DNA of 28,332 nucleotides, taken from a virus. The notes under the pieces are model-generated. The model was not told the DNA's origin, made no database searches, and was given only the letters and a program-made list of their open reading frames with translations. A program made the translations under genes and the position numbers. Location of the stretch: the IMG/VR virus record IMGVR_UViG_3300032181_000406, positions 1 to 28,332 of that record. The stretch is one strand, 5' to 3'. Positions 803 through 26,920 of the stretch are shown one piece after another; the stretch's first letter is position 1; every line of letters begins with the position of its first letter.

Positions 803-810
803 TATTTAGT
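803..810 (-). promoter_or_regulatory. Weak late-promoter-like octamer ACTAAATA
   Basis: The minus strand reads ACTAAATA in the 19-nt gap before the start at 791. It differs from the T4/cyanophage late consensus NATAAATA at the second position. Similar CTAAATA octamers occur at two other gene junctions in the window (6782-6789 and 7223-7230). The transcription start it would imply (about 797) leaves only a 5-6 nt leader, and CTAAATA arises easily from a TAA stop followed by AT-rich sequence, so this is a weak candidate. Confidence 0.15.
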
Positions 811-3800
811 TTAGTATGCTTTAATCAACCATCTTGTCCAGATGTATGGAGTAATCAAACCAACCTTTTCTTGTGGTGAGAAAGATGGCGTGGGAATAAT
901 TTGCTTATTTTGATCTAAAGTAAATCTACCAGGAAGAACTTCTATTCCTAGATCTCCACTGTTAAATTGTGCTTCAATAATAGGAGTGGATGGTACACCA
1001 GACTGTACTACTCCACCATCAGAAACATTACCATAACTAAATTTAGTGGGATCTCCCTGAACATTTTCTCTAGTTAAATAATGACTATGACTTAATCGAT
1101 TGACAGGTCTGAATTGATTAATACTAATTTGTCTTTCAGCAGCATCAATAGAAGCAACCCATTTGTGAAGATCTCCAGAAGAAACACCGCCAGGAGGAGC
1201 AGTATCTAGATCAATAAAACTGTTAATCTCATTATAAAAAGGGCTACCAACTTCCAATCCAGTCTGTCTATAGTTTACATCAGACCAACTATTGGTAATA
1301 TGCTCTCCATCACGACCATCACCTTGAACCAGAACAATACCACTACAGAATGATGGTTCCCAATCTTCTGTTGTATTTACCCAAGACGAATCACCCGCAG
1401 ATGTAGTTGTAATAGTATCATCAGCATCAAGTTCGATACCATCGAATACAGCATATCCCCAAAGGTTAATGAATGTATTATATTCAGGTTGTTGTGGTAG
1501 AGCATCTGTATTATAATTTACTGTTTGAAGATCATTACTCCTTCCGCCATTTCCACCCCATGAAATTCTACCTTTAAATCCCTGGTCAATAATACCAGTA
1601 ACAAGTTCATGAACGTGAGTTGGAATTTCAAACAATCTCTGTTCTTTCAAAGAAATATCTCCTCTAGATTCTCCTGTTGTGATGAATTCAATAGTAGATT
1701 GAACATCAACGTATCCACTAGTTCTAATACTACCAATGTCAAAGAACTGAGAATCAATAGGTTCTTGTCCTGTAGGTGGTTGTTCTACCTGTGGAATATC
1801 CTGAGCTGATGGAGAAGCAATAGTATCAATGAACCACAATCCACCATGAGATCCAGGAACAAATGCTGATCTATTTGCTGTATTCTTTGCTGGTCCAAAA
1901 TTAGGAGATAGAATAGCGGAAGACTGTCTGTTTCCATCAACAGGACCAGTACCAACTACTTTCTTATTTCTAAGATCAGGTAATCGGAATCTAGGTGGAG
2001 TTCCAACAAATTGCCCATATGTATATCCAAGAACATCAAATAGAGCAGGATATTCTAATGGATCTAAAGATTGACCATCACAGTAAATAAATCCAGGGAA
2101 TCTAGATACGATTGATCCATCGAGTTCACCAAATCCCGTAACTCCCGGATCTACACTATCTTTAAATACTGGCATCATTGTACCAATAGGTAATCCATCA
2201 AATTTAGTGGCATACTTAGTCTCTTCTATAACTGGTCCAGGAAGTAGATTTCTAAGAATAACATTCAAAGAACTATACCACTGTCCAAGAATAGGTTCTT
2301 GTGGTGGAGTTTCGAGGAATACAGTAAATGTTCCTTCGCCATCACCAATAAAAACTGTACCTACTCTCTGGAATCCAGGGAATAATGGAGATAAAAGTCT
2401 TGCTCTAATTAAAGTTCCATTAATAACTTGTATAGCACTGCCAACACCAGCATAAGTAGTATAGTTTCCTGTAAAACTACCACCAGGAGGAACAACTTCT
2501 AGTTCAATACCACTACCTTCATCTGTAAAGAGAGGAACACCACCGGGATTTGTAATACCAGCAAGTACCACAATAGCAGTGCTCTCTACTAACTGACTAG
2601 GAATTGCAGTTGAATCAACACCAAATGTAAAGTTGTCAGGAGTTGTGCCGAAGTTACCAGAGTTTGTAACACTCCAAGGAACAGGAAGATTAACACCAGC
2701 AGTAACTTGGAATACAACTTGTTCACCAGGAATAAGAGATGTAGTGTAATATAATCTAATAACATCAAACTCAGATACTACGGCACTACTTACACCTAAT
2801 TGAACACCATTGACTTCTAAAAATGCCTGTGCTCCAGTTGTAGGATCAGGAGCAATAGAAACAGTAATATCCTCACTAATATCCTGAATTACTTGTAAAT
2901 TACTAAAGACTTCAACAGCAGGATCCTGATTAATTAATGGAACGAATGCTAAAGTATCAGGTTCTAAGTCTGGCTCTGCTTGTGTTGTAACACTCCACGT
3001 AACTAGATTACTACTACCAACAACTACACCAGTGCTAACTGTACTTACAAAGTTTGGAGATGATGTTAATCTTAGTTGTAATCTTTGTCCGTTTTCGATA
3101 GTAGCTGGAGAAGGATCACTAGGATCCGAAGTTCTCCATGCTCCAAAAATATATGTTCCAGGATTACCAGGATCTTCTATTCCTACTCGTAGTTCAGCAC
3201 CATTAGTAGCGGTAACGTCAACTACTTGGTTAATACCACCAATAGTTACTTGATTAGATTCAACCAAAGTATTGATTGGTTGTAAAAATAGATCTTGGAA
3301 ACTAAAAGAAGAAGGACTTGTATCTGGAGGATCTCCAGTTGTTACAACCCATACAACTTCAGAACCATCACCAGGAGTTACAGTTACAGAATATCCAATG
3401 TTATACAAGAATCCAGTATTAATTCTAAGTTGAATGTAATAATTATTTCTTACAGCAGCACCAATACCCCATGGAGTAGTTAGTAGTGTTGCTATGTCTG
3501 GTGCTGTTCTAATAGCAGCACTTTGACCATTTGTAATTACATCAAATGATACAGTTCCTGTAATACCTGTGATTTGAACAATTTCAGATTCTACCTCGGT
3601 ATCTGGATCTACAGGTCCAGCAGGAGTAAAACTAAAAGGATCAGGTATTGTATCTTGAGGAGGCCAGGCAACAATTACAAGACCATCTTCTCCAGGACCA
3701 AATCCATTTTCAGAATTTGTTAAAGGAGATGTAATATTGGTGAATACAGCAGGATCATAATACCATCCACCACCAGTACCACCTGTAGCGTCAAGATCTT

Positions 3801-6750
3801 CAGACTCGGAAGGAGAAACAATAGATCCAATACGACCACCAAACTCATCAAACTTATCAGTGGTAGTAGTACCGCCAGTACCCCATCCACCACCGGCACC
3901 TCCACCGCCACCACCTTTAGTGGGGTTGTCTTCTCCATCATCACCTACAGAAATAATAGTACCAATAGGTTCAAGTGCTCCACCACCTAAGTTTTGGTTT
4001 CCATTTTGTGATGGTTCTGGAATTGTGGTATCACCACCGGCACCACCGCCACCACCACCGCCTCCAGCAACTACAAGAGTTTGAAGAACAGCAGAACTGA
4101 AAATATCTCCAACTAGTTGGTTGACACCAGAAGCACCGCCACCTCCTCCTCCACCACCGGAGAATTCATTAACAGCACCAGACCCGCCATTACCACCTGT
4201 AGCAAAACCAACGCCACCAGCTCCTCCAGCAGCACCATTGGCAAAACTATCACCATCTTCTCCTGCTGTGCCAACAATAATTTGTACTCTTCTATTATCA
4301 GGATCTTCCCAGAATGCAGCAGGGGAAGAAAGAGTTCCAGAGACCCAGTTTCCAGGAGCTCCTCTACCGCCAATACTGTTTGGTTGATCATCACCACCAT
4401 CACCACCACCAGCACCATAGACATAGAAATCAACCTCATCTGCCCAGTTAGGTAAGAATAATGTAGTGTCTTGTCCTCCCGTTTTTATGTCATATGTATA
4501 TTCATCTTTACGAGTAAGAACAGCAAATTTTTCTGTGACAAATGTAGCACCAAGACCTATTCTGTACGTCATCTCAACAACAGTTCCTGGTGGTCCTGCT
4601 TCAATACCAACATAAGCAGTACCATTGTTAACAGTAACTGCAGTTTGATACACTACATCATTAGTGGATACTCCAGCATTTGAAAATGGAGTAGCACTAA
4701 CAAGACTCAACGTAGTAGCAGCATCTAATCCTTGAAGATTAATTGGAGAAACAACAAATTCACCAGCATTTTCAACAACCTGAAATTCACTTTTAAATCT
4801 TTCTGGAACAATTCTAGGATCTCTAGTTGTTAGAGTTATTGTATCTGTAACATACGGAGGAACATTAAATACCGGACCAAGAGTAGGATTACCTAAAGGA
4901 CCACCATTTGGAGGACCTTGGAATACGATAGAACTTGTTAAAGTTTGATCATAAGAAGTAGAAGATCTAAATCGTAAATTCAATACATCGCCATTTTCTA
5001 CAAATATAGATGTTGACCAACTACCAGTATCATTTTTTCTTATTTCAGCACCACCCTGATTAACAACAGCAGCAATTCTTACATCTTCTCCATCGACAGC
5101 ACTAGTGTCGATAGGTAATGTTGGATTACCATCATCCCCAGCGAGAGGATCTTCTAAATCATTATATGCTCCATCTGGATATTCTACACCAAGTCCACTA
5201 ATAGGAACATCAACATAATATAACCTATCCACTTCGGCATTAGGTAGTGTAGTTGTTGTAGATACTCTTACTTTTCTGTATTGATTAAGTATAAAAACAG
5301 CATCATTATTACCACCATTAATTCTAATCTGATCTAAATCTTGATATCCAGTTCCTCTTTCGACGATTTCTAAAATAGCAATGCCGAAAGCAGGATCAGC
5401 TTGGAGAGTTCTAATTGTGAGGCCAGTAGCAGATGGGGTGGTAAGATTGGTAGTGGTGTATATCGTGTTATTAGTATATCCCGTTCCTTGTTGGTTGATA
5501 TCAATTTCAACATCATCGGAGAATGTAAAAATAGGACTTAAAGTAATGGGATCAGGATATCTATCTACTTCTGTCCAGATTTGTTGATCATCATTTCTAG
5601 TTCCTACTATTTGAGTTACTTCGAAGTTTCCATTGCCTTGATTAGCACCATATGTTCCAGCTGGATTATTGTCAAATCCACCTGGCAAAGTTTTATTTGG
5701 AACGGCAAATATAGTTAAATCACCAGTAGTTTTTGTAGTATAATCTAAACCAATAAGAGTTCTTGCTGTAATAGAATCTCCTAAAGTTAAATCATTAATA
5801 GTTTGTACCCAGTTAACTCCATCGGTAGAGATTTCAATATCACCAGTAGATTCTGCTTCGACAATAGTATCATCATCGATACCTGTGATAGGAAATGTTC
5901 TTGTCTTATAAGTACCAAAATCAAAATCTCTTTGGTCAATAAAATCAGTAAATACACCATCAAATAATGAAGTTACTTCCTGAAGTTGTGCTCTTGTAGT
6001 AATACTCCAAGTGTCTGATACAGCACCATTAGTGCCAGTCTCATTCCAATATTCATCAGAAATAGTAAGTGTTACGTTTGTATTAGTGGTATACCAATCT
6101 TCTGTAAGAATTCTAAGTCTTACTGTATTTCCTGCCTGTACTGTAAAATAAACATTTCCTGATGTATTTCCACTAGCCGATGCTGGTTCAACTACCGTAA
6201 CATTGTTTCCGGAAATATTAATAATTTCTCCTGTAATGTTAGGAGTATCAACATATCTTCCTACTGCTAATTGACCAACATTTCCGGAAGTAACAGTAAA
6301 CGTTTTGCTACCGTTAGTTGTACTTGCTGTAATTGCTATAAATTGATCTTGTTCTCTAATATATGGACCATCGTTAATACTAAATGCTGCTTCTGCTGAG
6401 TTTGGATATACTCCTTTAGGACCACTAGCAGATACAGCAATACGAATAGGAACTCTAAGTTCTATTCCAGAGACTTGAATTGCTTGAGAATAATATGTTG
6501 TGTTCTTTTCAAATACACCAATAAATGAACCAGATGTGGGATTTGTTCTACCAAATTGATCAGTAAATGAAAAGAAATCTGGTTGTGCGTCAGGAAGTTT
6601 CGTACCTACAGTGACATCATCAGTTCCTTCCCCAATCTGAACCTGAAAAGTAATATTAGTATTCCAAGTATCTGGAGTTGGATACCTTAATTCAATAAAA
6701 TCACCAGGATTAACAATAACCCCAGTAGAGCCTGCTGGAAGAAATGGCAT
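811..6750 (-). CDS. Mosaic tail-fibre protein: Ig-like repeats, glycine-rich domain, tail-collar domain (1979 aa)
   Basis: Probable distal tail-fibre/adhesin component of the virion. Residues 1-750 are beta-rich modules, including a small G-x-G-Y...D-x-I-x-I-x-G module near 455-480. Residues about 752-1030 are a glycine-rich domain with runs of 8 Gly, ending in the typical G-x-D-G-L-V-I-V. About 1037-1465 holds four Ig-like repeats of roughly 100-115 residues, most starting F-x-F and most ending W-S/V-V-T-T or similar. A tail-collar domain (PF07484 type: GFIYCDGQ, YPALF, LPDLR) lies at about 1525-1600. His-x-His motifs occur near 1710 (HVH) and 1890 (HSH), and the protein ends in L-I-K-A-Y, close to the L-I-R-A-Y end of the 569-aa collar protein. 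The N-terminus starts in mid Ig-like domain (NPGDFIELRY). The ATG at 6750 has an in-frame stop 21 nt upstream and no clear Shine-Dalgarno. The domain calls are strong; the exact role in the tail is inferred. Confidence 0.9.
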   Translation of the reverse strand: MPFLPAGSTGVIVNPGDFIELRYPTPDTWNTNITFQVQIGEGTDDVTVGTKLPDAQPDFFSFTDQFGRTNPTSGSFIGVFEKNTTYYSQAIQVSGIELRVPIRIAVSASGPKGVYPNSAEAAFSINDGPYIREQDQFIAITASTTNGSKTFTVTSGNVGQLAVGRYVDTPNITGEIINISGNNVTVVEPASASGNTSGNVYFTVQAGNTVRLRILTEDWYTTNTNVTLTISDEYWNETGTNGAVSDTWSITTRAQLQEVTSLFDGVFTDFIDQRDFDFGTYKTRTFPITGIDDDTIVEAESTGDIEISTDGVNWVQTINDLTLGDSITARTLIGLDYTTKTTGDLTIFAVPNKTLPGGFDNNPAGTYGANQGNGNFEVTQIVGTRNDDQQIWTEVDRYPDPITLSPIFTFSDDVEIDINQQGTGYTNNTIYTTTNLTTPSATGLTIRTLQADPAFGIAILEIVERGTGYQDLDQIRINGGNNDAVFILNQYRKVRVSTTTTLPNAEVDRLYYVDVPISGLGVEYPDGAYNDLEDPLAGDDGNPTLPIDTSAVDGEDVRIAAVVNQGGAEIRKNDTGSWSTSIFVENGDVLNLRFRSSTSYDQTLTSSIVFQGPPNGGPLGNPTLGPVFNVPPYVTDTITLTTRDPRIVPERFKSEFQVVENAGEFVVSPINLQGLDAATTLSLVSATPFSNAGVSTNDVVYQTAVTVNNGTAYVGIEAGPPGTVVEMTYRIGLGATFVTEKFAVLTRKDEYTYDIKTGGQDTTLFLPNWADEVDFYVYGAGGGDGGDDQPNSIGGRGAPGNWVSGTLSSPAAFWEDPDNRRVQIIVGTAGEDGDSFANGAAGGAGGVGFATGGNGGSGAVNEFSGGGGGGGGASGVNQLVGDIFSSAVLQTLVVAGGGGGGGGAGGDTTIPEPSQNGNQNLGGGALEPIGTIISVGDDGEDNPTKGGGGGGAGGGWGTGGTTTTDKFDEFGGRIGSIVSPSESEDLDATGGTGGGWYYDPAVFTNITSPLTNSENGFGPGEDGLVIVAWPPQDTIPDPFSFTPAGPVDPDTEVESEIVQITGITGTVSFDVITNGQSAAIRTAPDIATLLTTPWGIGAAVRNNYYIQLRINTGFLYNIGYSVTVTPGDGSEVVWVVTTGDPPDTSPSSFSFQDLFLQPINTLVESNQVTIGGINQVVDVTATNGAELRVGIEDPGNPGTYIFGAWRTSDPSDPSPATIENGQRLQLRLTSSPNFVSTVSTGVVVGSSNLVTWSVTTQAEPDLEPDTLAFVPLINQDPAVEVFSNLQVIQDISEDITVSIAPDPTTGAQAFLEVNGVQLGVSSAVVSEFDVIRLYYTTSLIPGEQVVFQVTAGVNLPVPWSVTNSGNFGTTPDNFTFGVDSTAIPSQLVESTAIVVLAGITNPGGVPLFTDEGSGIELEVVPPGGSFTGNYTTYAGVGSAIQVINGTLIRARLLSPLFPGFQRVGTVFIGDGEGTFTVFLETPPQEPILGQWYSSLNVILRNLLPGPVIEETKYATKFDGLPIGTMMPVFKDSVDPGVTGFGELDGSIVSRFPGFIYCDGQSLDPLEYPALFDVLGYTYGQFVGTPPRFRLPDLRNKKVVGTGPVDGNRQSSAILSPNFGPAKNTANRSAFVPGSHGGLWFIDTIASPSAQDIPQVEQPPTGQEPIDSQFFDIGSIRTSGYVDVQSTIEFITTGESRGDISLKEQRLFEIPTHVHELVTGIIDQGFKGRISWGGNGGRSNDLQTVNYNTDALPQQPEYNTFINLWGYAVFDGIELDADDTITTTSAGDSSWVNTTEDWEPSFCSGIVLVQGDGRDGEHITNSWSDVNYRQTGLEVGSPFYNEINSFIDLDTAPPGGVSSGDLHKWVASIDAAERQISINQFRPVNRLSHSHYLTRENVQGDPTKFSYGNVSDGGVVQSGVPSTPIIEAQFNSGDLGIEVLPGRFTLDQNKQIIPTPSFSPQEKVGLITPYIWTRWLIKAY

Positions 6751-6781: not shown

Positions 6782-6789
6782 TATTTAGG
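6782..6789 (-). promoter_or_regulatory. Late-promoter-like octamer CCTAAATA before the 1979-aa gene
   Basis: The minus strand reads CCTAAATA across the TAA stop of the 65-aa gene, 32 nt upstream of the ATG at 6750. That places it at a suitable distance for a late promoter of the 1979-aa fibre gene, but it differs from NATAAATA at position 2. The same octamer recurs at 7223-7230. Overlap with a stop codon makes chance occurrence plausible. Confidence 0.25.
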
Positions 6790-6982
6790 CTTGATTCTGC
6801 TCGTCTAGTGCTTTAATATCTACCCACGGACCTCCATTTACTCTCACTTGAAGAGGAATAGATGCTTTTATTTCCGATTGCTCGTCGATATTGTTTAAAC
6901 TAATTCTTCCGGATTTATAAAAATCCGATTTTTCTGGATGAATACCAGACTGGTTAATTTTATTCTTCTTAAATTCTTTCAT
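6785..6982 (-). CDS. Small protein resembling the isolated first half of an Ig-like fibre domain (65 aa)
   Basis: The start ATG overlaps the TGA stop of the 77-aa gene as ATGA (4 nt), so translation is probably coupled. The N-terminal ~25 residues are basic and lysine-rich. Residues about 28-58 (ISLNNI...SEIKA...QVRVNGGPWVDIK) align by eye with the C-terminal segment of the three glycine-rich paralogues (sEIkT..PD.QVSVN.Gg) and with the first half of the Ig-like repeats in the 1979-aa protein. There is no room for the second half of the sandwich, yet the next gene begins with a segment like that second half. No family is recognised. It may be a fibre adaptor, or a remnant of a split fibre gene. 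I am confident that it is a gene, not of its function. Confidence 0.75.
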   Translation of the reverse strand: MKEFKKNKINQSGIHPEKSDFYKSGRISLNNIDEQSEIKASIPLQVRVNGGPWVDIKALDEQNQA

Positions 6983-7212
6983 AGTGTACTAAAAAATGTA
7001 TTAATCAATGTTTGAATGTTATCAGGTAAAGAAGAAATATCGTCTCCTTGATTATAGTTTTCTTTTCTTTTAGTTGATGTCTTTACCTGAAAAGGAGTTT
7101 CCGAGTTAGAATCAAAATTATATTGTTCAGTTGTATATACCACCTCCACATATGGATCACTAATACGCGGATATTTAAATTGAACTGCCGAAATAAATGT
7201 TGTACTGTCCAT
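6979..7212 (-). CDS. Small hypothetical fibre-operon protein (77 aa)
   Basis: It is preceded by 13 nt after the 536-aa gene and overlaps the next gene by 4 nt (ATGA). There is no signal peptide or membrane segment, and the protein is polar and rich in Ser, Thr and Asn. Residues about 18-47 (YVEVVYTTEQYNF...PFQVKT) resemble the second half of the Ig-like fibre modules (GD-x-I-x-L-R-x-x-T/S...V-x-T-T), while the C-terminal 25 residues look helical. The upstream 536-aa protein ends in the matching first half, so the two could form one domain. I do not recognise a family. The packed operon position and the coupled overlap argue that it is a real gene. Confidence 0.75.
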   Translation of the reverse strand: MDSTTFISAVQFKYPRISDPYVEVVYTTEQYNFDSNSETPFQVKTSTKRKENYNQGDDISSLPDNIQTLINTFFSTL

Positions 7213-7222
7213 GGTTTTTAGA

Positions 7223-7230
7223 TATTTAGG
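7223..7230 (-). promoter_or_regulatory. Late-promoter-like octamer CCTAAATA before the 77-aa gene
   Basis: It is the same octamer as at 6782-6789, overlapping the TAA stop of the 536-aa gene and lying 10 nt upstream of the ATG at 7212. The implied transcription start (about 7217) would leave a leader of only about 5 nt, so it is a poor promoter candidate for this gene. Confidence 0.15.
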
Positions 7231-8836
7231 ATGAAGGTGGTGTACCTATTTGTCTCATGTTCTGCCAAGTAGAACTACTATTAACACTTACTTGACTATC
7301 TGGATCTTCTGTCTTGATTTCTACGGGTATTTCACTATCATTGATATTAATTTGCTGTGAGAATATATACTGCTGGTTTAAGTCAGGAACAACAGTATCA
7401 ATATCTGGATTAGGATAAGCGTTAGGAGATAATGGTTGCCCTTCAGCATCAAATGTTTCTTCTAAACGTGGTGCTCTAGTTGTACAATTAAAAGTATAAC
7501 TATCCGTCCCAATACTTATCGAGTAAGAACGAGTAGTTGTTTGACCAACAACAAATCCACCAGAAGTACCACCGGGAGTTCTTGATTGATTGAACGGGGC
7601 AGATGTATATCTCACAAAAATAAATTTCTGTGTAGTGGGAACCAAAATTTGATTTGTAGTCCAACTGCTAGCATTTAAACTGAGTCTTGTTCCTACACCA
7701 GAGACAGAATTACATCTACAAGGCATATCAGTTGTATTTCCCCAATCAACCCTAGAATAGTAATCTTGATCGTCTTCTGCGTTTAGAATAGTATTTCCAC
7801 TAGCAGTTTTAGTTCCACCGCTGCTGGTTCCGATTGGTATACCATTTCCTAAAGTTTTAGGACCTGGATTGTTATCGTTAAATACTCTGGCTGTTGTAGA
7901 ACTGAATGTTCTTAAGGTCGGACTAGCAATAGTATTTCTTGCTTCCAAAACATATGTTCTAGTTGCCGGAGAATTAGATCCTGCAGTTGAATTTAATCCT
8001 GTATTAATAGTAGTGGTATTACCAGTTGCTGCTGTACCCAATCCAGTGGCAACAATAGGACCACTAGAACTATTTGCTCTAATACGGACAGCATTAGCAA
8101 GAGTGACACCCCATTGGAAAGTTACATTACTGCTTGGATTGCCATTTGCAGATGTCTGAGTTGTCGATGTAAAGAAAGAAATACTTGGTGGAGTAAAATT
8201 ATAGATTAGTCTAGCGCCACCTCGAGCCCCTGATCCTGCTGGGGCTTCTGTTTGCGTGAATCCGCCAGGTCCGAAAGAGATCTCGATTTTATTACCAGCA
8301 CCTCCACCACCCATCGTTCCTCCATTAGTACCAGCAGGTCCTTGACAGGCACCACCATATCCTATTCCCTGCCCTCCTTGATTGTCACTATTTCCTCTAG
8401 GGCATCCCCCAGCACCGCCACCGACTCCATCAGGGTTTCCATCATCATCACCACCAGATCTTCCAGGTCTTACACTATCACCGGGACCAAACTGGCCTCC
8501 GCCACCTCCACCTCCACCATTATCATCTGTTCCTCTACCTCCACCATTAGCTTGAATAGTAAGTCCGCTCCATCCAGAAATGAAACTACTACCCCCGCTG
8601 TTATTAATACTTCCACCGCTACCAACTCTAATGCTTATATTTTGACCATTTGATACAGGTCTTGCGGGTCCGGCGGAAACCCATCCGCCACCGCCGCCTC
8701 CGCCTCCTTGACGGTCATTATCATCATCACGATATCCACCTCCACCTCCACCAATGACAACACCCCTCATACTAATTACGCCAAAGGGAACATTAAAATT
8801 ATAATTTCCTGGTGAGTTATAATTGACGTTAATCAT
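7226..8836 (-). CDS. Glycine-rich tail-fibre paralogue, copy 3 (536 aa)
   Basis: Probable virion adhesin or fibre component. Residues 1-35 (INVNY, FNVPFGVISMRGVVIGGGGGG) followed by 36-213 form a glycine-rich domain of the phage Gly_rich_2 type: an initial beta hairpin, Gly runs broken by V-S-N-G-Q-x-I-x-I-x-V-G-x-G-G, and a closing G-G-A-R-L-I-Y strand. Residues about 215-320 are an Ig/PKD-like domain, 320-450 a second beta module, and 450-536 the C-terminal segment shared with the 873- and 551-aa proteins, ending M-R-Q-I-G-T-P-P-S-S. The start codon directly abuts the TAA of the 873-aa gene in the same frame, with an AGG about 12 nt upstream. The first 23 residues resemble those of the 551-aa copy (INVNY, VPF or IPF, VIS), so these two are the closest pair in their tips. 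The receptor role is inferred. Confidence 0.9.
   Translation of the reverse strand: MINVNYNSPGNYNFNVPFGVISMRGVVIGGGGGGYRDDDNDRQGGGGGGGGWVSAGPARPVSNGQNISIRVGSGGSINNSGGSSFISGWSGLTIQANGGGRGTDDNGGGGGGGGQFGPGDSVRPGRSGGDDDGNPDGVGGGAGGCPRGNSDNQGGQGIGYGGACQGPAGTNGGTMGGGGAGNKIEISFGPGGFTQTEAPAGSGARGGARLIYNFTPPSISFFTSTTQTSANGNPSSNVTFQWGVTLANAVRIRANSSSGPIVATGLGTAATGNTTTINTGLNSTAGSNSPATRTYVLEARNTIASPTLRTFSSTTARVFNDNNPGPKTLGNGIPIGTSSGGTKTASGNTILNAEDDQDYYSRVDWGNTTDMPCRCNSVSGVGTRLSLNASSWTTNQILVPTTQKFIFVRYTSAPFNQSRTPGGTSGGFVVGQTTTRSYSISIGTDSYTFNCTTRAPRLEETFDAEGQPLSPNAYPNPDIDTVVPDLNQQYIFSQQININDSEIPVEIKTEDPDSQVSVNSSSTWQNMRQIGTPPSS
7229..7483 (-). repeat. Paralogous C-terminal coding repeat, copy in the 536-aa gene
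   Basis: This encodes the ~85-residue module T-T-R-A-P...D-I-D-T...Q-V-S-V-N...M-R-Q-I-G-T-P. The same module is encoded at 8840-9079 and 11466-11717. Similarity is visible at DNA level as well as protein level, especially in the last ~90 bases before the stop, which implies gene duplication within the operon. Confidence 0.85.
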
Positions 8837-11458
8837 TTATGGAGTACCTATCTCTCTCATGTCTTGGAACCCACCAGTATTTATTGAGACTTGAACATCA
8901 GGATTATCTGTTTTTATTTCAGAAGAAACTTCAATGTCATTCATATTTGCTGTATTGGTAATAATATAGGCATCGCTAGGATTAAATGTCGTATCAATAT
9001 CTGGATTAGGATAAGCATCTGGTGATAAAGGCAATCCATCAAAGTTAAAAGTTTCTTCAAGGATTGGTGCTCTAGTAGTTACATTAAATGATGAAGATTG
9101 TGTACCAAAAGAAAAGTTAATTGTTTGTGTATTAGTCTGACCTAAAGTTTGTCCTGCTTGGTTTTGACCACTAGGAGTTCTATCAGAATTAAATGGTGGC
9201 GAAGTATATTCTACATAGAAAAAACTTTGTGTTGTGGGAATTAGAACATTAGTATCCCATGTTATAGCATCTGCTGATACTCTCACCCCAGCACTACCAT
9301 TAGCAAATGTATTCATATCAACTCCTGTAAAATCTACCCGAGTATAATATACCACATTAGGTTCTAATGATGTTATATTAAGTGTACCAGGAGATGCTGT
9401 TGTCCCTGGAGTAATACTAGTGGGGGTATTATCATTAAGAGCACTTACTGTTATAGTTTGTGATGCTGTTCCGGCAGCATTAGTAACAGTCATTGTGTAA
9501 TCTCTTGTCCGAGGAGAAGTAACTCCTGCTTCGGATTGCCCTACATCGTTGACAACTAACGTACCACTACTTCCAGAAACAGAATAAGAAGTAACGCCAC
9601 TTTGTATTGTAAATGTTGTAGCAACAGAGTTACCACTACCATCTTCACTAGTATATGACCAACTAATTATGGTACTAGAAGAAGGAACACCATTGGAACT
9701 TGTTATAGGATTAGGAGAGGCAGAAAATACATCGATAGTTGGAGGTATAGCAACAATAGCTATTTCAGCACTAACAAAGGTAGCACCCGAAGATTCCGAA
9801 ATACTAAAGTTAGTGGCAAAACTAGCATTTAATACAGGGATTTCTACTGGTGAATAAATCTGAAGAGGATTTACAGCAGGGTCTGGGAGTCCACCGGCAT
9901 ATGAAGATCCACCACCTCCACCTCCACCAAAGTATCCGCCAAAATCAAAGTCAGTGTCCCATCCACCGCCGCCACCGCCGCCGCCGTAGTAACCTTGTCC
10001 ACCATCGCCACCAGTTCCATCAACACCATCACCACCAGCACCGCCACCAGCACCAGGAATGTTGTAGTTGATTGTTATATATCCAGTATCAGAATCTGAC
10101 TCTTCTAATATAGCCGGAGCAATAGTATGATAGTTTGGGTTGTAATATCCATCTCCTCCACTGCCGGGGTATCCACAGATATGATTACCAGCAGCAGAGT
10201 CAATACCACCAAGACCGCTATTGAAACCTCCACCTCCACCACCGGATCCACCATTAGCATTAAATCCATTACCGCCAGATGCGGCAGTGCCACCTACACT
10301 AGGCACTACACCACCTAAATCAGAAAGGATAATGCTAGTTGTTCCAGGATTGTCTCCAGCTATGAAATTGGTTGCAGTAACATTAGCGGCAGCGCCTGGA
10401 CCACCACCACCACCGCCAGCAGCAACAACAATATCACCGTTAAATGCTATAGCGGCGGCTCCACCTCCGCCACCTCCACCACCAGAAGTTCCCCAAGTTT
10501 CACTGCCGATTGCTAGACCACCCGTACCACCAGAATTAGCTCCAACAGCGCCAAATCCACCTACAACAGTACCAGCTCCAGTTTGACCATTGCCACCATT
10601 ATTGCCAGAGATAATATCTAATGTTAGACCAGCAACTCCGGTGATACTACCAGATATTTTCTGTCCTCGTCCCCCTTCTCCACCAGGATTGTTATTGAAA
10701 GTTGGAGGTGAACCTATTAGTAGAAAAGAATCACCACCAGAACCACCTTTACCGCCATGTATGACGTAGTTTATCTGATCAACCGAAGCAGGTATTGTAA
10801 TATTTGTGTTACCTGATGTAAATGTTTCCCCAAATGTTCCTACATTTCCATTAGGATCCCATAATCCTCCAGGTTGAGCAGGAACATTTGCAAGATCACC
10901 ACCAGATACTCCAGCAGTTCCACCAATACCAGACAAATATCCGAGTGTAGTTCCGCCTCCTCCACCTGTAGAACCATTTAAGTCTTGACCAGCTGCTCCA
11001 CTTGGAGATCCAGCATTACCACCAAGAGTATTTCCAGGTCTAGGTGGATGACCAGTGCCGAGGAAAGAGAGATCATCTCTAGGAACACCTTCTCTTCCAC
11101 CACCACCAGCCATCATTATGATACGACCAGCATCACCATTGTTATCATAGAATACGCCAGCATAGTCATAGTCACCCTTTACAACAGTTAAGTAATTGCC
11201 AGATTCAATACGAACTGTTCCGGTAACTCTACTTCCATATCCACCATTTCCAAGTGCTGGATCGGCTCCAGGGGGAGCATTATCAGGAAGAAGTCCTCTT
11301 CTACCGTCAAGTCGAAAAGTTATATCGTAAGTAGTTCCTGCTTGGAACACACCACTTTCATCATTTATTTGAAGTAGGCAGATATCACCCGGAAAGGAGT
11401 AATTTGTGAAGTTAGTAATATCTGTGATAGGACCTTGATTAATAAGTTCTATTGTCAT
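8837..11458 (-). CDS. Glycine-rich tail-fibre paralogue, copy 2, with ALK/LTK-like glycine domain (873 aa)
   Basis: It shares its C-terminal 300 residues with the 536- and 551-aa proteins but has a larger and different tip. Residues 1-60 are a beta segment (FPGDICLLQ...YDITFRLDG) resembling the second half of an Ig-like fibre module. Residues 64-205 and 210-525 are two glycine-rich stretches. The second has the order poly-Gly, hydrophobic strand (IAFNGDIVVAA), poly-Gly seen in the ALK/LTK-type glycine-rich family (PF12810), and closes with GYITINY before a further Gly tail. About 572-672 is an Ig/PKD-like domain (I-S-W...Y-T-M-T-V-T-N). From 675 on are the shared modules, ending ...MREIGTP without the final PPSS of its relatives. 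The start has no good Shine-Dalgarno and lies 4 nt after the 551-aa gene. A structural role is well supported; receptor binding is inferred. Confidence 0.9.
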   Translation of the reverse strand: MTIELINQGPITDITNFTNYSFPGDICLLQINDESGVFQAGTTYDITFRLDGRRGLLPDNAPPGADPALGNGGYGSRVTGTVRIESGNYLTVVKGDYDYAGVFYDNNGDAGRIIMMAGGGGREGVPRDDLSFLGTGHPPRPGNTLGGNAGSPSGAAGQDLNGSTGGGGGTTLGYLSGIGGTAGVSGGDLANVPAQPGGLWDPNGNVGTFGETFTSGNTNITIPASVDQINYVIHGGKGGSGGDSFLLIGSPPTFNNNPGGEGGRGQKISGSITGVAGLTLDIISGNNGGNGQTGAGTVVGGFGAVGANSGGTGGLAIGSETWGTSGGGGGGGGAAAIAFNGDIVVAAGGGGGGPGAAANVTATNFIAGDNPGTTSIILSDLGGVVPSVGGTAASGGNGFNANGGSGGGGGGFNSGLGGIDSAAGNHICGYPGSGGDGYYNPNYHTIAPAILEESDSDTGYITINYNIPGAGGGAGGDGVDGTGGDGGQGYYGGGGGGGGWDTDFDFGGYFGGGGGGGSSYAGGLPDPAVNPLQIYSPVEIPVLNASFATNFSISESSGATFVSAEIAIVAIPPTIDVFSASPNPITSSNGVPSSSTIISWSYTSEDGSGNSVATTFTIQSGVTSYSVSGSSGTLVVNDVGQSEAGVTSPRTRDYTMTVTNAAGTASQTITVSALNDNTPTSITPGTTASPGTLNITSLEPNVVYYTRVDFTGVDMNTFANGSAGVRVSADAITWDTNVLIPTTQSFFYVEYTSPPFNSDRTPSGQNQAGQTLGQTNTQTINFSFGTQSSSFNVTTRAPILEETFNFDGLPLSPDAYPNPDIDTTFNPSDAYIITNTANMNDIEVSSEIKTDNPDVQVSINTGGFQDMREIGTP
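8840..9079 (-). repeat. Paralogous C-terminal coding repeat, copy in the 873-aa gene
   Basis: Same module as at 7229-7483 and 11466-11717. This copy is the most diverged (MREIGTP) and stops four codons earlier than the other two. Confidence 0.85.
8878..8885 (-). promoter_or_regulatory. Possible internal late promoter AATAAATA
   Basis: The minus strand reads AATAAATA, an exact NATAAATA match, 42 nt upstream of the 536-aa gene start. It lies inside the coding end of the 873-aa gene, where it encodes part of S-I-N-T. The two paralogous copies of this segment do not keep the octamer, so it could be chance or a copy-specific promoter for the 536/77/65/1979 genes. Confidence 0.35.
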
Positions 11459-11462
11459 TTTT

Positions 11463-13118
11463 TTAAGATGATGGTGGAGTTCCTATTTGTCTCATGTTTT
11501 GATATCCTCCGCTATTAACACTTACTTGAGTGTCCGGATCATCAGTTTTAATCTCAACACCAACTTCGGCGTCGTCCGAGATAACAGTATTACTAAAAAT
11601 ATAAGGTTGATTTACATCCGGTTCTAAGGTATCAATGTCTGGATCAGGATAAGCGTTAGGAGATAGTGGTTGACCTTCATAGTCAAAATCTTCCTGGAGA
11701 ACAGGTGCTCTAGTTGTAACTGTCACCGTAACATTATCAGTTCCACAAGTAAAAGAAATATTTTTGCTATTAGTTTGTCCAATAACTTTACCATTACTAT
11801 TAGTACCACCAGGAGTTCTGGATGTATTAAACTCAGGAGATGTAAATCTTACATAAAACTCGTTATTAGTACCTGTTGTAGTTAATCTAGAAGGTCCAAA
11901 AGTGCTGTTATTTAAACTTACCTCAGTATCTGTTCCGGCAGTAACCTGAGTATTCATATCTACTCCGGTTGGTCTATATCGTATAGAATACACTGTGTCT
12001 GGTTCTAAAGCACTTAGTTCAGTATCATCTACTGTCTGTGTACCATTCTGATTTACAACACTAGTAGGATTGTTGTCATTTCTTACATTGGCAGTGGCAC
12101 TAGTGCTAGTACCAACATTGGGTTGTCCAGGACGAGTTTGTCGAGCAACTAAATACAAAGTTTTTTGAGCAGGACTAGTAACTCCTGCTACCGACGTTAA
12201 TTCAGTGTCTAGATCTACACTCCCACTGCCAGTTACACCATCATAGACGAGATTGTCCACAAGTAGATTTCCCGGAGATCCAAAAGCAGCATCTCTTATT
12301 CGTAGATCAGTAGCAAACTGAACGCCGGTCCAACTACATGTATTTACAGACGACGGGACACCAGTTGTTGAGTTTTGAGCCTCAACAGTAAAAGTTCCGA
12401 TTACTGGATCTTCAAACTCATATTGTATTCTAGCGCCTCCAGTTCCTCCATTTCCTGCTTGACTTGTTGCACCGGTTCCGGTTCCACCTCCGCCTCCACC
12501 ATAAGTTCCACCAACTCCGTTACTAGGACATGGCTGACCACCTCCTCCAAATCCTATTCCTTTACCACCATTTCCAGCAAAACGGGATTCGCCGCCGGGA
12601 ACACATGATACTTCTCTATATCCACAGTCACCATTTAAATTTCCAGCATTTCCTCCTCTTCCAGCACGTAAAGCAGTAGCAGCGCCACAACTACCAGATC
12701 CACCACCTTGATAAAAGTCATCTTCATTACCACCATCTTCTCCTGGTCGATTATCATCTACAGTGCCACCACAAGTTCCACCGGGACTTCCGCCACCGCC
12801 AGATCCTCCTATTCCGCCACCAGCAACTGTGCTTTGTCCTGTAGGAGCATATCTAATACGGGTCTGACCGCCAGGGGAAGAGGAATCAGGCGGAGCAGAC
12901 CCACCTGCCCCCACATTGATTGTCCATTGTTGTCCAGCAATAACAGAATGATTTCCAGCACAATAAGCGCCTCCACCACCTCCACCACCTAAGGCATCAC
13001 CATCATTATCAGCATTACCAGATCCACCAGCACCAATACAAATAGCACGTATGCTTATTACAGCAAAAGGTATAGTAAACGTACTATCTCCAGATGATGT
13101 GTAATTAACATTAATCAT
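11463..13118 (-). CDS. Glycine-rich tail-fibre paralogue, copy 1, Cys-rich tip (551 aa)
   Basis: Probable virion fibre or adhesin protein. Residues 1-235 are a Gly_rich_2-like domain: INVNYTSSG, FTIPFAVISIRAICIGAGGSG, several Gly runs, and the closing strand GGARIQYEF. Unlike the sister tips it holds seven cysteines in that domain (about residues 27, 53, 116, 144, 165, 172 and 197). Residues 238-347 are an Ig/PKD-like domain, 347-465 a beta module (LEPDTVYSIRY...GVDMNT), and 468-551 the shared C-terminal segment ending MRQIGTPPSS. It starts 2 nt after the stop of the 293-aa collar gene with no visible Shine-Dalgarno, so translation may be coupled. Paralogy with the next two genes is clear by eye. 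The binding target is unknown. Confidence 0.9.
   Translation of the reverse strand: MINVNYTSSGDSTFTIPFAVISIRAICIGAGGSGNADNDGDALGGGGGGGAYCAGNHSVIAGQQWTINVGAGGSAPPDSSSPGGQTRIRYAPTGQSTVAGGGIGGSGGGGSPGGTCGGTVDDNRPGEDGGNEDDFYQGGGSGSCGAATALRAGRGGNAGNLNGDCGYREVSCVPGGESRFAGNGGKGIGFGGGGQPCPSNGVGGTYGGGGGGTGTGATSQAGNGGTGGARIQYEFEDPVIGTFTVEAQNSTTGVPSSVNTCSWTGVQFATDLRIRDAAFGSPGNLLVDNLVYDGVTGSGSVDLDTELTSVAGVTSPAQKTLYLVARQTRPGQPNVGTSTSATANVRNDNNPTSVVNQNGTQTVDDTELSALEPDTVYSIRYRPTGVDMNTQVTAGTDTEVSLNNSTFGPSRLTTTGTNNEFYVRFTSPEFNTSRTPGGTNSNGKVIGQTNSKNISFTCGTDNVTVTVTTRAPVLQEDFDYEGQPLSPNAYPDPDIDTLEPDVNQPYIFSNTVISDDAEVGVEIKTDDPDTQVSVNSGGYQNMRQIGTPPSS
11466..11717 (-). repeat. Paralogous C-terminal coding repeat, copy in the 551-aa gene
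   Basis: Same module as at 7229-7483 and 8840-9079. It is closest to the 536-aa copy, sharing the terminal MRQIGTPPSS. Confidence 0.85.
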
Positions 13119-15712: not shown

Positions 15713-18700
15713 TTAGATTTCCGTTAACCACCATCCAACATCAACACTTGCTCCAGTGCTAGTTCCATCATAGCGGACGTTTCCTAGATACACAAGACCA
15801 AATGCTGCGTTTGGCGTCTGAACTAGTAGTTCTCCACCATTGAATCCAGATCCTGTAATAGGTCCAGAGTTATCAGCACCACCTTGAACTCTTGTGCCAT
15901 CAACTGCTCTAATTCTTAGAGATACATTGTAAGTGAGTCTACCACCAACATCAGTAATACGGATCATATCTCCGTGAGTTGGAAGTTCTGGTAACTCAAG
16001 TAACATATCAGCAGCAGGAGCGATGAAATAGTTAGTATTTGAAGAGATAGGTTGAACCTGTACACCAGGACCAATATAATCCCATTGTCTTCCACCGGTA
16101 GGAGTCATGAAAGCTTCCTGGCCAGCGAAACTCATGGATCCATCATTATTTATGGAGAAGTTAGTCTCCCCAATTTGAGAAGATGTTAGGTTAGAACCAG
16201 ATCTATCAATTAAAGTATCGGCATTGACATTTAGATCAGCACCGTTGATAGTAACATCACCGGCAAAAATATTTTCTCCAGTGGCGTTAGTTCTAATAAC
16301 ACCAGCGATGGTCAGATCACCAGAAGCATTATTGAATACGAGTTGGTTATCATCAGTGGTATTCTTGATGACAAGATTTCCTTCCGTAATTGTTGTGTTT
16401 CCATTAGCAGATTCAACAATAAATCTATCAAGGTTATCTCTACCAACTCTCAAATCTCCACGGATAAATGTTTCACCGTCAAAACTATCAACAGCAAATT
16501 TTTCCTTATCGGCATCATTAGATCCATCAGTGATGACTAATCTTTCAAGATCAGGAGCAGTAGTACCTTCTAGACAGATACTCTTATCAACGGTTAACTT
16601 ACCACCAATAAAGGTGTCACCAGTAACAGAATCTACAGAGAAAGAAGTAATAGCAGGTGAACCACCATCAGTAATAACAAATTGTTGGTTAGTTACCTGA
16701 TTGATTGCTGTTACTGTAGTAAGTTCTCCGAGGTTGCTATTATCATCAGAAGATAGTCTAAAGATATCTCCCACATTAATAGATCCGCTGAAGTTACCAG
16801 TAGAAACATTTTCTAAAGTTCCTTCCGCAACATCTAAGAGATCTTGAGTTAAGAAACTGACATTGGCAGAGAAGTCAAAGCGAACAAGAACTGCTTGATC
16901 TGGGTGATCTGTTCTTAGGTACTTGTAGTTTGTAGGAGGTTCAGCATCAAGAGGAAGATTAGAAGGTGTACCCAGAATCATGTCACCATTGACATCTAGT
17001 TGGTTTCTAGCACGTCTTACTCTTACGTATAGAGGATCTGGACCAACATCATTTAGATTAGGAACACCAATAACTTCTAGAAGTTCACTATATTCTTCGC
17101 CAACAGGAGCATTTCCTTGTACTGGAGAAGGTACTGATCTATCAATCAAGACATAAGATCCAACTTCAAAGTCTAGAAGTGTAGCAGGTTGATCAATAGT
17201 TAATCTGTAAACTGTTGGGTCAGTAGCAAATCCAACACTAGTATCTTTAAACTCAGCTTCATTACCCCAATACTGAGCACCCTCAGAACTTAGTCTGATG
17301 TTAATTGGTGTTCTCTTATAGAAGTCAATGTTAGAGTCATCAATCTCATTTCCTTCACTGTGAGCTGTAGTTGGAGTTCCCAAGGAACCACGACGTAGTT
17401 CAAACTGACCAGCATTTAGACCACCCTGTAGTGTTACATCTCCAAATAGATCTGTATCAGCATTAACTTCGAGGGAGTTATTAACAACTGTAGTACCACC
17501 AAGAGCACCAATACTAATATTAGTAGAAGATAGTCCAAAGTTAATGTTTGTGGTAGTTGTTGTTAGTAAGTTGAACGTTTGAGCAGGAGAGTTAAATCTA
17601 GCAATACCAGATCCAGGTGTCAATGCTTGTCCAACTCTAATGTCTCCATCGAAGTAAGCAAATCTGTTATAAACCTTGAGGATAGATCCACTGAATAGGT
17701 CGTCAGATGTATTAGCATAAGCACCACCTAGTTCAATTACGCTAGAGAAACTAGAATCATTATTACCAGCAGTTGCTATTCTAACAACACCGTTTTCGGT
17801 AGTAGAATGTAGATTAAACTCAGTTACTGGAGAGAATCTACCAATGTTAACAATCTGATTACCAGAGATGTTGCCTAGGTTGATTTCTTGATCAGCAGTG
17901 GTTTGGTTGGCAATATTAAGTTCTTCGCCAATATTAACAAAGTTGAGTCTTGTTGTAACTGTTGGGAGAAGGTTGAAGTTTGTAGTTTGACTGATGAGAC
18001 TTTCACCACCAATGGTTAGATTCTGCTCTAGTAAGCAGTCATCGGTGATTCTCATGTCACCATCAACAACGAATGTTCTGTCTAGTTCAGAAAAATCTAC
18101 ATTGATACCAACTCTTCCATTATTAGTGGTAGAGATTCTAAATGTAGCTTCTTGTGATGGATCACTACTATCACCACCAACTAGGAAAGCGTGATCAACA
18201 GTTAAGAACGTTCTGTTATTAGGATCAGGATTGAGTAAGAAATTATTTGATACTCCAGTTTCTAGAACTTTACCACTAATCCATGCCGTACCAACAACAT
18301 CAAAGTTAGCTCTTGGTAATACAGCATCAGATACAAACCCTTCTTCTTGATCCCCACCCGGACCATGAGTAGCACGAGCTAAGGTATTAATACCAACTTT
18401 AAAGTCTCCGTAATCATCAGTTAATGTTCTGATAGATTCAGTTCCTAAGATACCAGTTTCTTTCCATTGATCAACAGATACTTCAATCAACGGACTTCCG
18501 GGTAGAGAAGTAATAGTAGTTGGATCACCAGGATCACTGACGATAAGGAATGAAATTTCAACTTCAAAGGATGTACCAGTGACGTTAAGAGCAGTTCTGA
18601 TACCATTGATATTCTGGAATCTGCCAGAAAATCCACTTAATCTAATCTGAGATCCAGTCGAAATGCCTAAATCAGCAGGAGATGTTCCGAAGATAGTTGT

Positions 18701-21700
18701 GAATACTGCTCTGTTACTTACAGGAGTTGTAGCACTAATTGTATTAATACCAGCAGTATTATCAACATAGAAGTTGGAATAGATCCAACCTAAAGATCCC
18801 GTCTTACCAACCTCTAATCCTTTATAAAGAGTATCTCCAGTGAGAGGAGAATCACTACCGTAAGTAATAGGAATACCTACAGACGCATTAGTTTGATTTG
18901 GAGTATGATTAGAAGGTAAATTACCATTAGAAGGATCTACATGAGTTCTCCAGCTATAGTTTTGACCAGATAAGGTTGTTGTTCCTCTTGGATTGAGTCT
19001 ATAGATAGCAGCATATAGATTGTTCTGTGTAGCAACGATATTACCCTCGGATGGGATATTGCTAAAGTTGAATGAAGAACTATCTAACGTTTGATCACCG
19101 CCGTTGTTGAAATCTACGTTCGAGACAACTGTAAGGGCATTACCTTCGATTGGATCAACACTAATCGTTACCGGATTGCCGAAGGAAGCATTGCCATCAA
19201 CGGTAATCTCTTTCTCAAATACAACTGGTAATGGGAAAGTAGTTACCAATCCACCAAGATCTCCCTCTTCATCATCAGTCTCAACTAGTTGAGCAGATTC
19301 TAGGAATGTCTCTTCACCAGTAATAGCATTGATTTTCTTATTACCAATGTAAAGATCACCATTAGAGTTTAGACCGGTATAGAATACAATACCAGCATCT
19401 TCTCTCTTAGACTGAGCATAGAAGTCCTGAATATCAGATAGGACAACTTCTTGTCTAAGTGGGAAACCAGTAGAGTAGTTACCAGGACCAAATCCTAGAT
19501 ATTCAAACGTGTGGTTTCCAGATCTAGCGATAGAAGGACGACGTAGTTCAACAAACAGTTTATTTTCACCAGAATTCTTGTAGAGAGAATCACCTACAAT
19601 AGAAATTCTACGGTCTTCTGAACCAGAAGTAGCATTACCTGTTTGTGCTTCGATAGAGTTAGTAATATACTCGTATCTGCTTAGAGCAGGGTTACTAATA
19701 AAATCAAGAATAGATTCCTTTGTTTCACTATTCTTGCTATCATTTGTTCTGACAAGACCATGTACATAGTTATCAGCAGCACAAATAGTCTCTGGGGGAT
19801 CTAAGATAGTGCTATCTCTGCTACCATCTGGCTGAACCTGGAACCAGAGAGGATCGTTCTTATAGTTTAGTGGATATAGTTGAGAAATAGGTTGAGAGAA
19901 CTTAAAGTTTCTGAAGTTATCACCTACACCAGGACCAGTTGGGAATGGAGAAATATTACCACGTAAGCAGGTTAGATAGTAAATACCTTCTTGCTGGTTA
20001 GGAATACGTCTCTGGATTTCATTAATATCAAAGATATAGAAAGAATCTTCGAAATCTCCAACATCTTCAACCGAGATAACTTCATAATCAGATGTGGAAT
20101 CATCAATAATAACATCACCAGGAACCATTGTAAGAACATTAGCGTCCTTATTGCTGTATAGATAATCTTCCTTAGCAGACTTGCTTAGTGCTTCATTACC
20201 AGCACTGTCTGGTTTTGCTTGTAAAGTAGCAAAGATGTTGATTGGATTACCATTGATATCGAACGTAGGATCATTATCACCATCAAGAACAGGTTGAGCA
20301 AATACAGTGTTGACAAACTGATTGTACTCGATGGGCTCACTAGACTCAATCGCTTTGATAATTAAGTAATGGTCATTAGTTCCATCGGGGTTAAAGTATC
20401 CCTGAATATAACCAGAACCAGAAGAATATCCACTCCAAGTAACTCTATTAAGAACTGTAGATTCTAATTCATCAACTCTAAATGATCCACCTTGAGGGGC
20501 ATTGATCTTAACAACTGTGAACTTCTCATTCTTTAGAGCGTTGTTGTTGATACCGTGGTTGAATACAGTTAGTTCTAATCTAAGATCATTAGGATCACCA
20601 ATACCACCGATATCAATCTGTCTAGCAGACATGATGCTAAACGAAATCTTAGAATCAGTTCTATCAGAATCAATAATCTTAACCTGGCTGGCATCATAAG
20701 CATCATAATCTAGATTTGGATCAAGTCCAGGATCACCTGTAGGTAGACCTAATGCTTGCTGAATTGTTCCCCCTGATGTAACAATAGGTACATTAAATGT
20801 AGCTACAGGAGCACCTCCACCTAGATTTTGTAGAACGATTCTTTGTGCTACAAGTCTTCTTGTTTCGTCAGTTCTTGCCTTAATGACAAATCCATTGAGA
20901 GGATCACGAACCCCAGTAGCATACCTAGGAATGACATAACGTAATCTATAGACTCTATCTTCAGCAGGTCTATCATCATTTAATCTAGTGAAGAAAGCAT
21001 TCTTTGTTCTAGTGTCAGTTAAAGTGACACCCAACTGAATCATTCTATCAATAATATTGTCAGAATTACCAATGTCAGGAACAGTTTGAATATACCATTG
21101 ACCAGTAGAAGTATTGGCGTTAGTTAATTCAGCATCAAACTTAACAGGAGATCTTCTCTTATCCGAGAATACATAGAAGTCTTGTCCAAATCCCTGACTG
21201 AACACGATTGGAGTAGCACCAGCAAGAGCTTCTGCTTCTGTTTCAAAGATAGAGAAGGTCTTAGGTGTTACATACCTGGCGTAGTAGTAGGTGTTTGGAT
21301 CAATAGGTCCTCCGCCAATTCCAGCAATTTGAGGAAGAGTAGAATTATTTCCAAAAGTTCTAAAGAATACTTTATGGATGGTATCTGTAGATCCAGGAAC
21401 ATCAAAGACGTGAGGTACATCTGTCTGTAAGACATCATTCAATCCACTAACTTCATTACATAGGTATTGGTGTAGACTATAGTCAAGATCAAGTACATAT
21501 TGCTGAATCTCAATTTCTAAATCTGGATCAACAGAATCAGTTTCAGAAGAATATAGATAGATACCAGCGGCAGCATTTTCTTTGGTGCTAGCCAGCATCA
21601 ATTTAGTTTGAGATGATGCTTCAAAAATACCAGGATAAGTAGCAGCATCAGCATAGTTTTCTGGTTGAGTAGTTCTACCAGGAGCAATTACATAGTAAAT

Positions 21701-26912: not shown

Positions 26913-26920
26913 TATTTATA
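26913..26920 (-). promoter_or_regulatory. Late promoter TATAAATA for the fibre operon
   Basis: The minus strand reads TATAAATA, the exact T4 late-promoter octamer recognised by the gp55 sigma factor. By the T4 spacing, transcription would start near 26907, leaving a ~35-nt leader before the giant gene's ATG at 26872. It lies 24 nt beyond a strong terminator, as expected at a boundary between transcription units. Confidence 0.85.

What the first reader, a model, noticed from the sequence alone, without database searches (positions are those of the whole stretch)
7000..11720. The same half-domain pattern recurs at the 551|873 and 536|77 boundaries
All three glycine-rich paralogues end right after the first-half motif Q-V-S-V/I-N...M-R. 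The 873-aa protein starts with FPGDICLLQ...YDITF, and the 77-aa protein has YVEVVYTT...FQVKT, both resembling second halves. Three boundaries with the same cut point look less like accident and more like an ordered assembly code, in which each fibre segment docks on the next by completing a sandwich, analogous in idea to donor-strand complementation. The 873|536 boundary does not show it.
Basis: inference. Interest (0 to 1): 0.65.

Follow-up and report, generated by a model that had tools for sequence, protein, structure and literature searches.

The report
Split domain docks cyanophage tail adhesins
In many viruses of marine cyanobacteria, several different tail proteins all end in the first half of one small protein domain while a single tail-fibre protein begins with the missing second half, so they probably plug into that one fibre, which would explain how these viruses carry interchangeable host-binding heads.

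Summary
Only one gene, the 1979-aa gp12-like short tail fibre, starts with the second half (SH). The 873-aa and 77-aa N-termini are not second halves, so serial docking is not supported. FH and SH profiles tile the complete domain of gp12-like proteins (columns 3-54 and 64-106 of 106). The arrangement recurs across Kyanoviridae: every informative locus with FHs has one SH, on the gp12-like protein; 1-6 paralogues share the FH; next-paralogue N-termini lack SH. In phage Sf-CH1b the cut has moved: both paralogues end one strand short and the gp12-like protein starts with that strand. FH type follows the resident SH, not the paralogue's head. AlphaFold2 models of FH+SH read as one chain match gp12-like complete domains. 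Best reading: many-to-one trans completion of a split beta-sandwich, docking interchangeable adhesins on one gp12-like fibre. Shown: halves, conservation, co-occurrence. Inferred: physical pairing, stoichiometry.

The parts
11463..13118 (-). 551-aa Gly-rich tail protein (paralogue 1), C-terminal first half (FH)
   Evidence: Gly_rich_2 PF21722 E 5e-13; FH HMM at residues 491-545, E 5e-5
11484..11648 (-). FH of the 551-aa protein
8837..11458 (-). 873-aa Gly-rich tail protein (paralogue 2); N-terminus is NOT a second half
   Evidence: phrog_29022 virion structural protein E 1e-24; no SH/CD match at the N-terminus
8849..9037 (-). FH of the 873-aa protein
   Evidence: FH HMM residues 808-870, E 2e-6
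7226..8836 (-). 536-aa Gly-rich tail protein (paralogue 3)
   Evidence: PF21722 E 3e-8; C-term matches the very end (1154-1192/1193) of phrog_2155
7247..7417 (-). FH of the 536-aa protein
   Evidence: FH HMM residues 474-530, E 3e-9; complete-domain HMM columns 9-67 only
6979..7212 (-). 77-aa protein of a small conserved family; not a second half by these tests
   Evidence: family HMM hits only window-type loci; orthologue SfFR1_26
6785..6982 (-). 65-aa stand-alone FH gene
   Evidence: FH HMM E 2e-7; orthologues of 57-62 aa in L003, L025, L026, L028, L030-L033
811..6750 (-). 1979-aa gp12-like short tail fibre
   Evidence: phrog_4924 short tail fiber E 1.5e-112; Collar PF07484; orthologue SfFR1_28
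6601..6747 (-). Second half (SH) at the N-terminus of the gp12-like protein, the only acceptor in the window
   Evidence: SH HMM E 5.5e-10; complete-domain HMM columns 64-106 at residues 2-50
2317..3669 (-). Four complete copies of the same repeat domain inside the 1979-aa protein
   Evidence: complete-domain HMM, residues 1028-1478, E 1e-12 to 1e-25
6782..6787 (-). TAAATA, late-promoter-like, overlapping the 65-aa stop codon, before the gp12-like gene
   Evidence: NATAAATA is the reported S-PM2 late promoter (PMC2984593)
7223..7228 (-). TAAATA overlapping the 536-aa stop codon, before the 77-aa/65-aa pair

Best explanation
A beta-sandwich repeat domain of gp12-like cyanophage tail fibres is split between proteins. 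A variable set of tail proteins, several with N-terminal glycine-rich heads of the kind that bind receptors in other phages, all end in the first half (about four strands, FH). The gp12-like short tail fibre begins with the second half (three strands, SH). In the virion the FH of a head protein and the SH of gp12 complete one sandwich in trans, locking the head protein onto the N-terminal end of the gp12-like fibre. Because every paralogue carries the FH type that fits the resident gp12, heads can be duplicated, lost or exchanged while the docking site is kept. In the window's clade a 65-aa gene supplies a free FH, probably a plug or adaptor for the same site. Shown: the halves, their profile complementarity, conservation and co-occurrence. 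Inferred: physical pairing, stoichiometry, and that the heads bind hosts.
For: (1) FH and SH profiles align to complementary parts of the complete domain: columns 3-54 (E 7.5e-5, probability 62%) and 64-106 (E 4.4e-11, probability 97%). (2) FH hits end within 10 aa of the stop in 333 of 363 unique sequences; SH hits lie at the N-terminus in 104 of 113; the internal SH hits inspected lie in complete domains. (3) Co-occurrence: all 48 INPHARED records with FH also have SH; in 231 loci SH follows the last FH, and the 16 others are 15 contigs cut inside the next paralogue plus L026, whose gp12-like start scores below threshold; S-H9-1, ACG-2014h and S-RSM4 lack both. (4) Moved cut: in Sf-CH1b the 681- and 1466-aa proteins end at domain column 95/96 and gp12 starts MSYTTTWSVSTY, the last strand. 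(5) FH type follows the genome's SH, not the head: 112 opposite versus 1 same-sign charged pairs among heads seen with both SH types; FH identity 67% within a genome across different heads versus 49% for the same head across genomes. (6) AlphaFold2 of FH+SH read as one chain: strands in both halves, core pLDDT mostly 75-93, pTM 0.62-0.64; Foldseek match to S-CAM1 gp12-like at E 3.6e-4, probability 1.00, about 120 columns.
Against: No complex was modelled: the AlphaFold2 chains are artificial read-throughs with stop codons read as Gly, from relatives and not from the window itself. PDB fold matches are weak (no E below 0.001). The charge swap is largely one lineage split on the gp12 tree, so it is not many independent events. 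FH numbers vary from 1 to 6, so no simple trimer stoichiometry. Some FHs lie inside fused paralogues. The window clade has four FHs for one SH, unexplained.
Confidence: 0.7

Rival explanations
1. Each half folds on its own or is completed within a homotrimer (strand swapping between identical chains), and the resemblance to one domain is only common origin.
For: Fibre proteins of this kind are usually trimers; FH occurs internally in fused paralogues without SH next to it; FH has a good predicted core.
Against: FH is always accompanied by SH in the same genome; FH type tracks SH across unrelated heads; the moved cut in Sf-CH1b keeps complementarity.
Confidence: 0.17
2. Relic of a fission: an ancestral paralogue-gp12 fusion was cut where a late promoter arose, and the halves now have no joint function.
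For: TAAATA lies at 95 of 96 unique FH-stop to gp12 junctions versus 9 of 180 FH-stop to next-paralogue junctions.
Against: Both halves are conserved between the window type and S-PM2 types whose following gp12 sequence aligns poorly; all 1-6 paralogues and a stand-alone 57-65-aa gene keep the FH.
Confidence: 0.07
3. One reading: each fibre segment docks on the product of the next gene.
For: FH at every paralogue C-terminus; 65-aa gene next to gp12-like gene.
Against: 203 of 204 distinct next-gene N-termini lack SH, the exception being a gp12-like protein; 873 and 77 N-termini do not match.
Confidence: 0.03
4. Read-through or programmed frameshifting makes one FH-SH polypeptide.
For: The genes are adjacent and short-gapped.
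Against: Gap frame is not conserved (unique gaps mod 3: 44/24/20) and gaps of 26-60 nt hold several stops; it could not serve the upstream paralogues.
Confidence: 0.02

Closest known systems
Donor-strand complementation in chaperone-usher pili
   Same: An incomplete Ig-like domain in one subunit is completed by sequence from another subunit; in Sf-CH1b the donated part is a single terminal strand.
   Different: Here the split is usually near mid-domain (about 4+3 strands), one acceptor serves many partners, and no usher or periplasmic chaperone is involved; not a family member.
T4 gp12 short tail fibre and its N-terminal attachment to gp10
   Same: The acceptor is gp12-like (phrog_4924, Collar domain); in T4 the gp12 N-terminus is the attachment end (PMC3004832).
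   Different: T4 gp12 binds gp10 coaxially; no split Ig-type domain is described there, and the cyanophage protein has many extra repeat domains.
Gly-rich tail fibre tips (Salmonella phage S16 gp38, cyanophage Pam3 gp24)
   Same: Gly-rich domains that serve as receptor-binding tips (PMC9608196); Pfam Gly_rich_2 matches the 551- and 536-aa proteins.
   Different: Here the Gly-rich part is N-terminal and attachment is by a C-terminal half domain.

Membership tests
Donor-strand complementation (chaperone-usher type) | Subunit lacks part of an Ig-like fold at sequence level | tested here: met
   FH maps to columns 3-54 of 106 and ends at the stop; Sf-CH1b C-termini stop at column 95/96
Donor-strand complementation (chaperone-usher type) | Missing strand(s) supplied by another subunit | tested here: inconclusive
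   Complementary SH on gp12-like and AlphaFold2 of joined halves support it; no physical complex shown
Donor-strand complementation (chaperone-usher type) | Dedicated periplasmic chaperone and outer-membrane usher | not tested
   Not expected in a phage and none of the window proteins scanned matched such a family, but no directed search was made; not filed as a member
T4-type short tail fibre gp12 (1979-aa protein) | Short tail fibre profile and collar domain at the C-terminal part | tested here: met
   phrog_4924 E 1.5e-112 and PF07484 E 1.8e-12
Gly-rich receptor-binding tip (551, 873, 536 aa) | Gly-rich domain profile | tested here: met
   PF21722 for 551 and 536; 873 has no Pfam hit but matches phrog_29022
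Gly-rich receptor-binding tip (551, 873, 536 aa) | Binds a host receptor | not testable with these tools
   Inferred from PMC9608196
Ig-like beta-sandwich fold (FH+SH) | Fold match over both halves | tested here: inconclusive
   PDB hits to Ig/Fn-type sandwiches over about 116-133 columns but E 0.03 or worse; strong only against predicted gp12-like domains

The most novel reading that the evidence does not exclude
A one-acceptor, many-adhesin docking code: each gp12-like fibre has identical split-domain sockets that can take any of 1-6 different head proteins from the same genome, so virions of one clone could carry different or mixed head sets, and heads spread between phages only together with the FH type that fits the resident gp12.
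Probability: 0.3. Interest if true: 0.85.

Novelty: new variant of a known kind. Interest (0 to 1): 0.66.

Why it matters
Many T4-like cyanophages carry tandem 'virion structural proteins' of unknown role. A shared C-terminal half domain matched to the gp12-like N-terminus gives them a testable function (heads docked on the short tail fibre), a rule for how heads are exchanged between phages, and a small two-piece interface (about 60+60 residues) that can be tested directly. No description of such a split domain was found in the papers searched, which is an open-access library only.

Tried and rejected
tblastn of the 65- and 77-aa proteins against INPHARED found nothing, which would have suggested orphans; gene order in Sf-FR1 and HMMs showed otherwise. 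A joined window FH+SH chain needed a four-letter codon that the structure tool does not accept; not pursued, and relatives with in-frame gaps were used with stops read as Gly. Alignments mixing FH-only, SH-only and joined rows were misplaced by MAFFT and not used for folding. The idea of exactly three FHs per gp12 trimer was dropped: counts run 1-6, with mode 3. Charge covariation as many independent events was dropped: six parsimony changes, mostly one lineage split. A Pfam/PDB sequence identity for the complete domain: none significant.

Full report
What is in the window. The window is a 28-kb viral record. Its minus strand carries a tail operon of T4-like cyanophage type: 3719 aa; 569 and 293 aa collar proteins; 551, 873 and 536 aa; 77 aa; 65 aa; a 1979-aa gp12-like short tail fibre; and a 263-aa ORF running off the end. 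The same gene order with 58- and 82-aa counterparts of the two small genes is found in the isolate Synechococcus phage Sf-FR1, so the small ORFs and the split are not sequencing errors.

Checking the observation. I built a first-half (FH) HMM and a second-half (SH) HMM from annotated cyanophages without the window. FH matches the C-termini of 536, 65, 873 and 551 aa (E 3e-9, 2e-7, 2e-6, 5e-5). SH matches only the N-terminus of the 1979-aa protein with confidence (5.5e-10), plus weaker hits inside that protein's complete domains. A complete-domain HMM from gp12-like repeats matches the 1979 N-terminus only with columns 64-106 of 106 and the 536 C-terminus only with columns 9-67, the latter weakly (E 0.01). 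Profile-profile alignment puts FH on columns 3-54 and SH on 64-106. The 873 N-terminus and the 77-aa family do not pass. So three C-terminal halves are confirmed, both second halves named in the title are not, and the best boundary is 65|1979.

Generality. In 14 annotated cyanophage records the 1-6 tandem 'virion structural proteins' before the gp12-like gene all end in FH, and the gp12-like protein starts with SH. Three phages without these paralogues (S-H9-1, ACG-2014h, S-RSM4) have a gp12-like protein without SH. Viral contigs found by SH and, separately, by FH agree: 333 of 363 unique FHs end within 10 aa of the stop, 104 of 113 unique SHs are N-terminal, and SH follows the last FH in 231 loci. 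Of the 16 loci without a called SH, 15 are contigs that end inside the next paralogue and one (L026) has a gp12-like start below threshold. In INPHARED all 48 FH records are SH records; the three extra SH records are AG-345-P14 and Sf-FR1, where FH is found by HMM, and Sf-CH1b, whose hit is an internal complete domain. The loci were selected by FH or SH, so these are tests of association, not a census.

Topology. Of 204 distinct next-gene N-termini after an FH, excluding those called as gp12-like, only one has an SH hit at E up to 1, and that is the L026 gp12-like protein. This rejects serial docking on the next gene product. The FH-to-gp12 gap is mostly 26-60 nt, its frame is not conserved, and it contains TAAATA at 95 of 96 unique junctions versus 9 of 180 FH-to-paralogue junctions; the S-PM2 late promoter is NATAAATA (PMC2984593). 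The halves are therefore made as separate polypeptides, with the gp12-like gene probably under its own late promoter (inference).

A natural experiment. In Sf-CH1b the 681- and 1466-aa proteins have three complete domains and a fourth that stops at column 95 or 96 at the C-terminus, and the gp12-like protein starts MSYTTTWSVSTY, which resembles the missing last strand by eye; the HMM itself does not score so short a piece. The cut has moved but the parts still add up.

Specificity. FH column 61 and SH column 23 carry opposite charges in 267 of 350 unique pairs and the same charge in 6. This is mostly one lineage split, so it is not proof by repeated coevolution. More telling, six head-domain clusters occur in genomes of both SH types, and FH matches the resident SH (112 opposite, 1 same among charged pairs). 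FHs in one genome on different heads are 67% identical, against 49% for the same head in different genomes and 47% for unrelated pairs. FH therefore evolves with the genome's gp12, as expected for a shared partner; gene conversion among the FHs of a genome could contribute.

Structure. Relatives whose gap is in frame allow FH, gap and SH to be read as one chain with stops as Gly; this is a modelling device, not a claim about translation. AlphaFold2 gave pLDDT 69 and 74, pTM 0.62 and 0.64, with strands in both halves and a disordered linker. Foldseek found predicted gp12-like proteins of S-CAM1 (E 3.6e-4) and ACG-2014e (E 2.6e-3) over about 120 columns and only weak Ig/Fn-type hits in the PDB. 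The rows were paired by genome, so the model uses real pairing; it does not show that separate chains bind.

Mechanism. Shown: two complementary half domains on different proteins, conserved and co-occurring, one acceptor and several donors. Established elsewhere: Gly-rich domains are receptor-binding tips in Pam3 gp24 and S16 gp38 (PMC9608196), and the T4 gp12 N-terminus is its attachment end (PMC3004832). Inferred: the paralogues are heads docked by their FH to SH on the gp12-like fibre. Selection on S-PM2 short tail fibre ORFs during coevolution (PMC9910659) is compatible but not specific.

Open points. The window clade has four FHs (three paralogues plus the 65-aa gene) for one SH; whether the free FH competes, caps or links to the baseplate is unknown. 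FHs inside fused paralogues show that FH need not be at a C-terminus. The binding itself is untested.

Noticed in passing
window 6782-6787, 7223-7228, 26913-26918, 803-808 (minus strand): Late-promoter-like NTAAATA sites lie just upstream of the gp12-like, 77-aa, 3719-aa and 263-aa genes; two overlap the upstream stop codon. At FH-to-gp12 junctions in relatives TAAATA is near universal.
   Followed up: partly
window 6979-7212; L025 9492, L028 7962, L030 9560, L031 9555, L033 7644, L003 12499: A 71-102 aa protein family of unknown function sits directly before the stand-alone FH gene only in window-type loci.
   Followed up: partly
L006 8751-14120, L008 10209-15794, L039, L046, L107-L113: Some paralogues are fused end to end and keep an internal FH followed by a linker, never by SH.
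   Followed up: partly
window 15713-26872: The 3719-aa protein repeats a motif KCKRD(I/L)G(Y/F)(I/F)VDA(V)S.D...GG several times; not studied.
   Followed up: no
L173: The one unique FH-to-gp12 junction without TAAATA has a 1-nt gap (TAAAATG).
   Followed up: no
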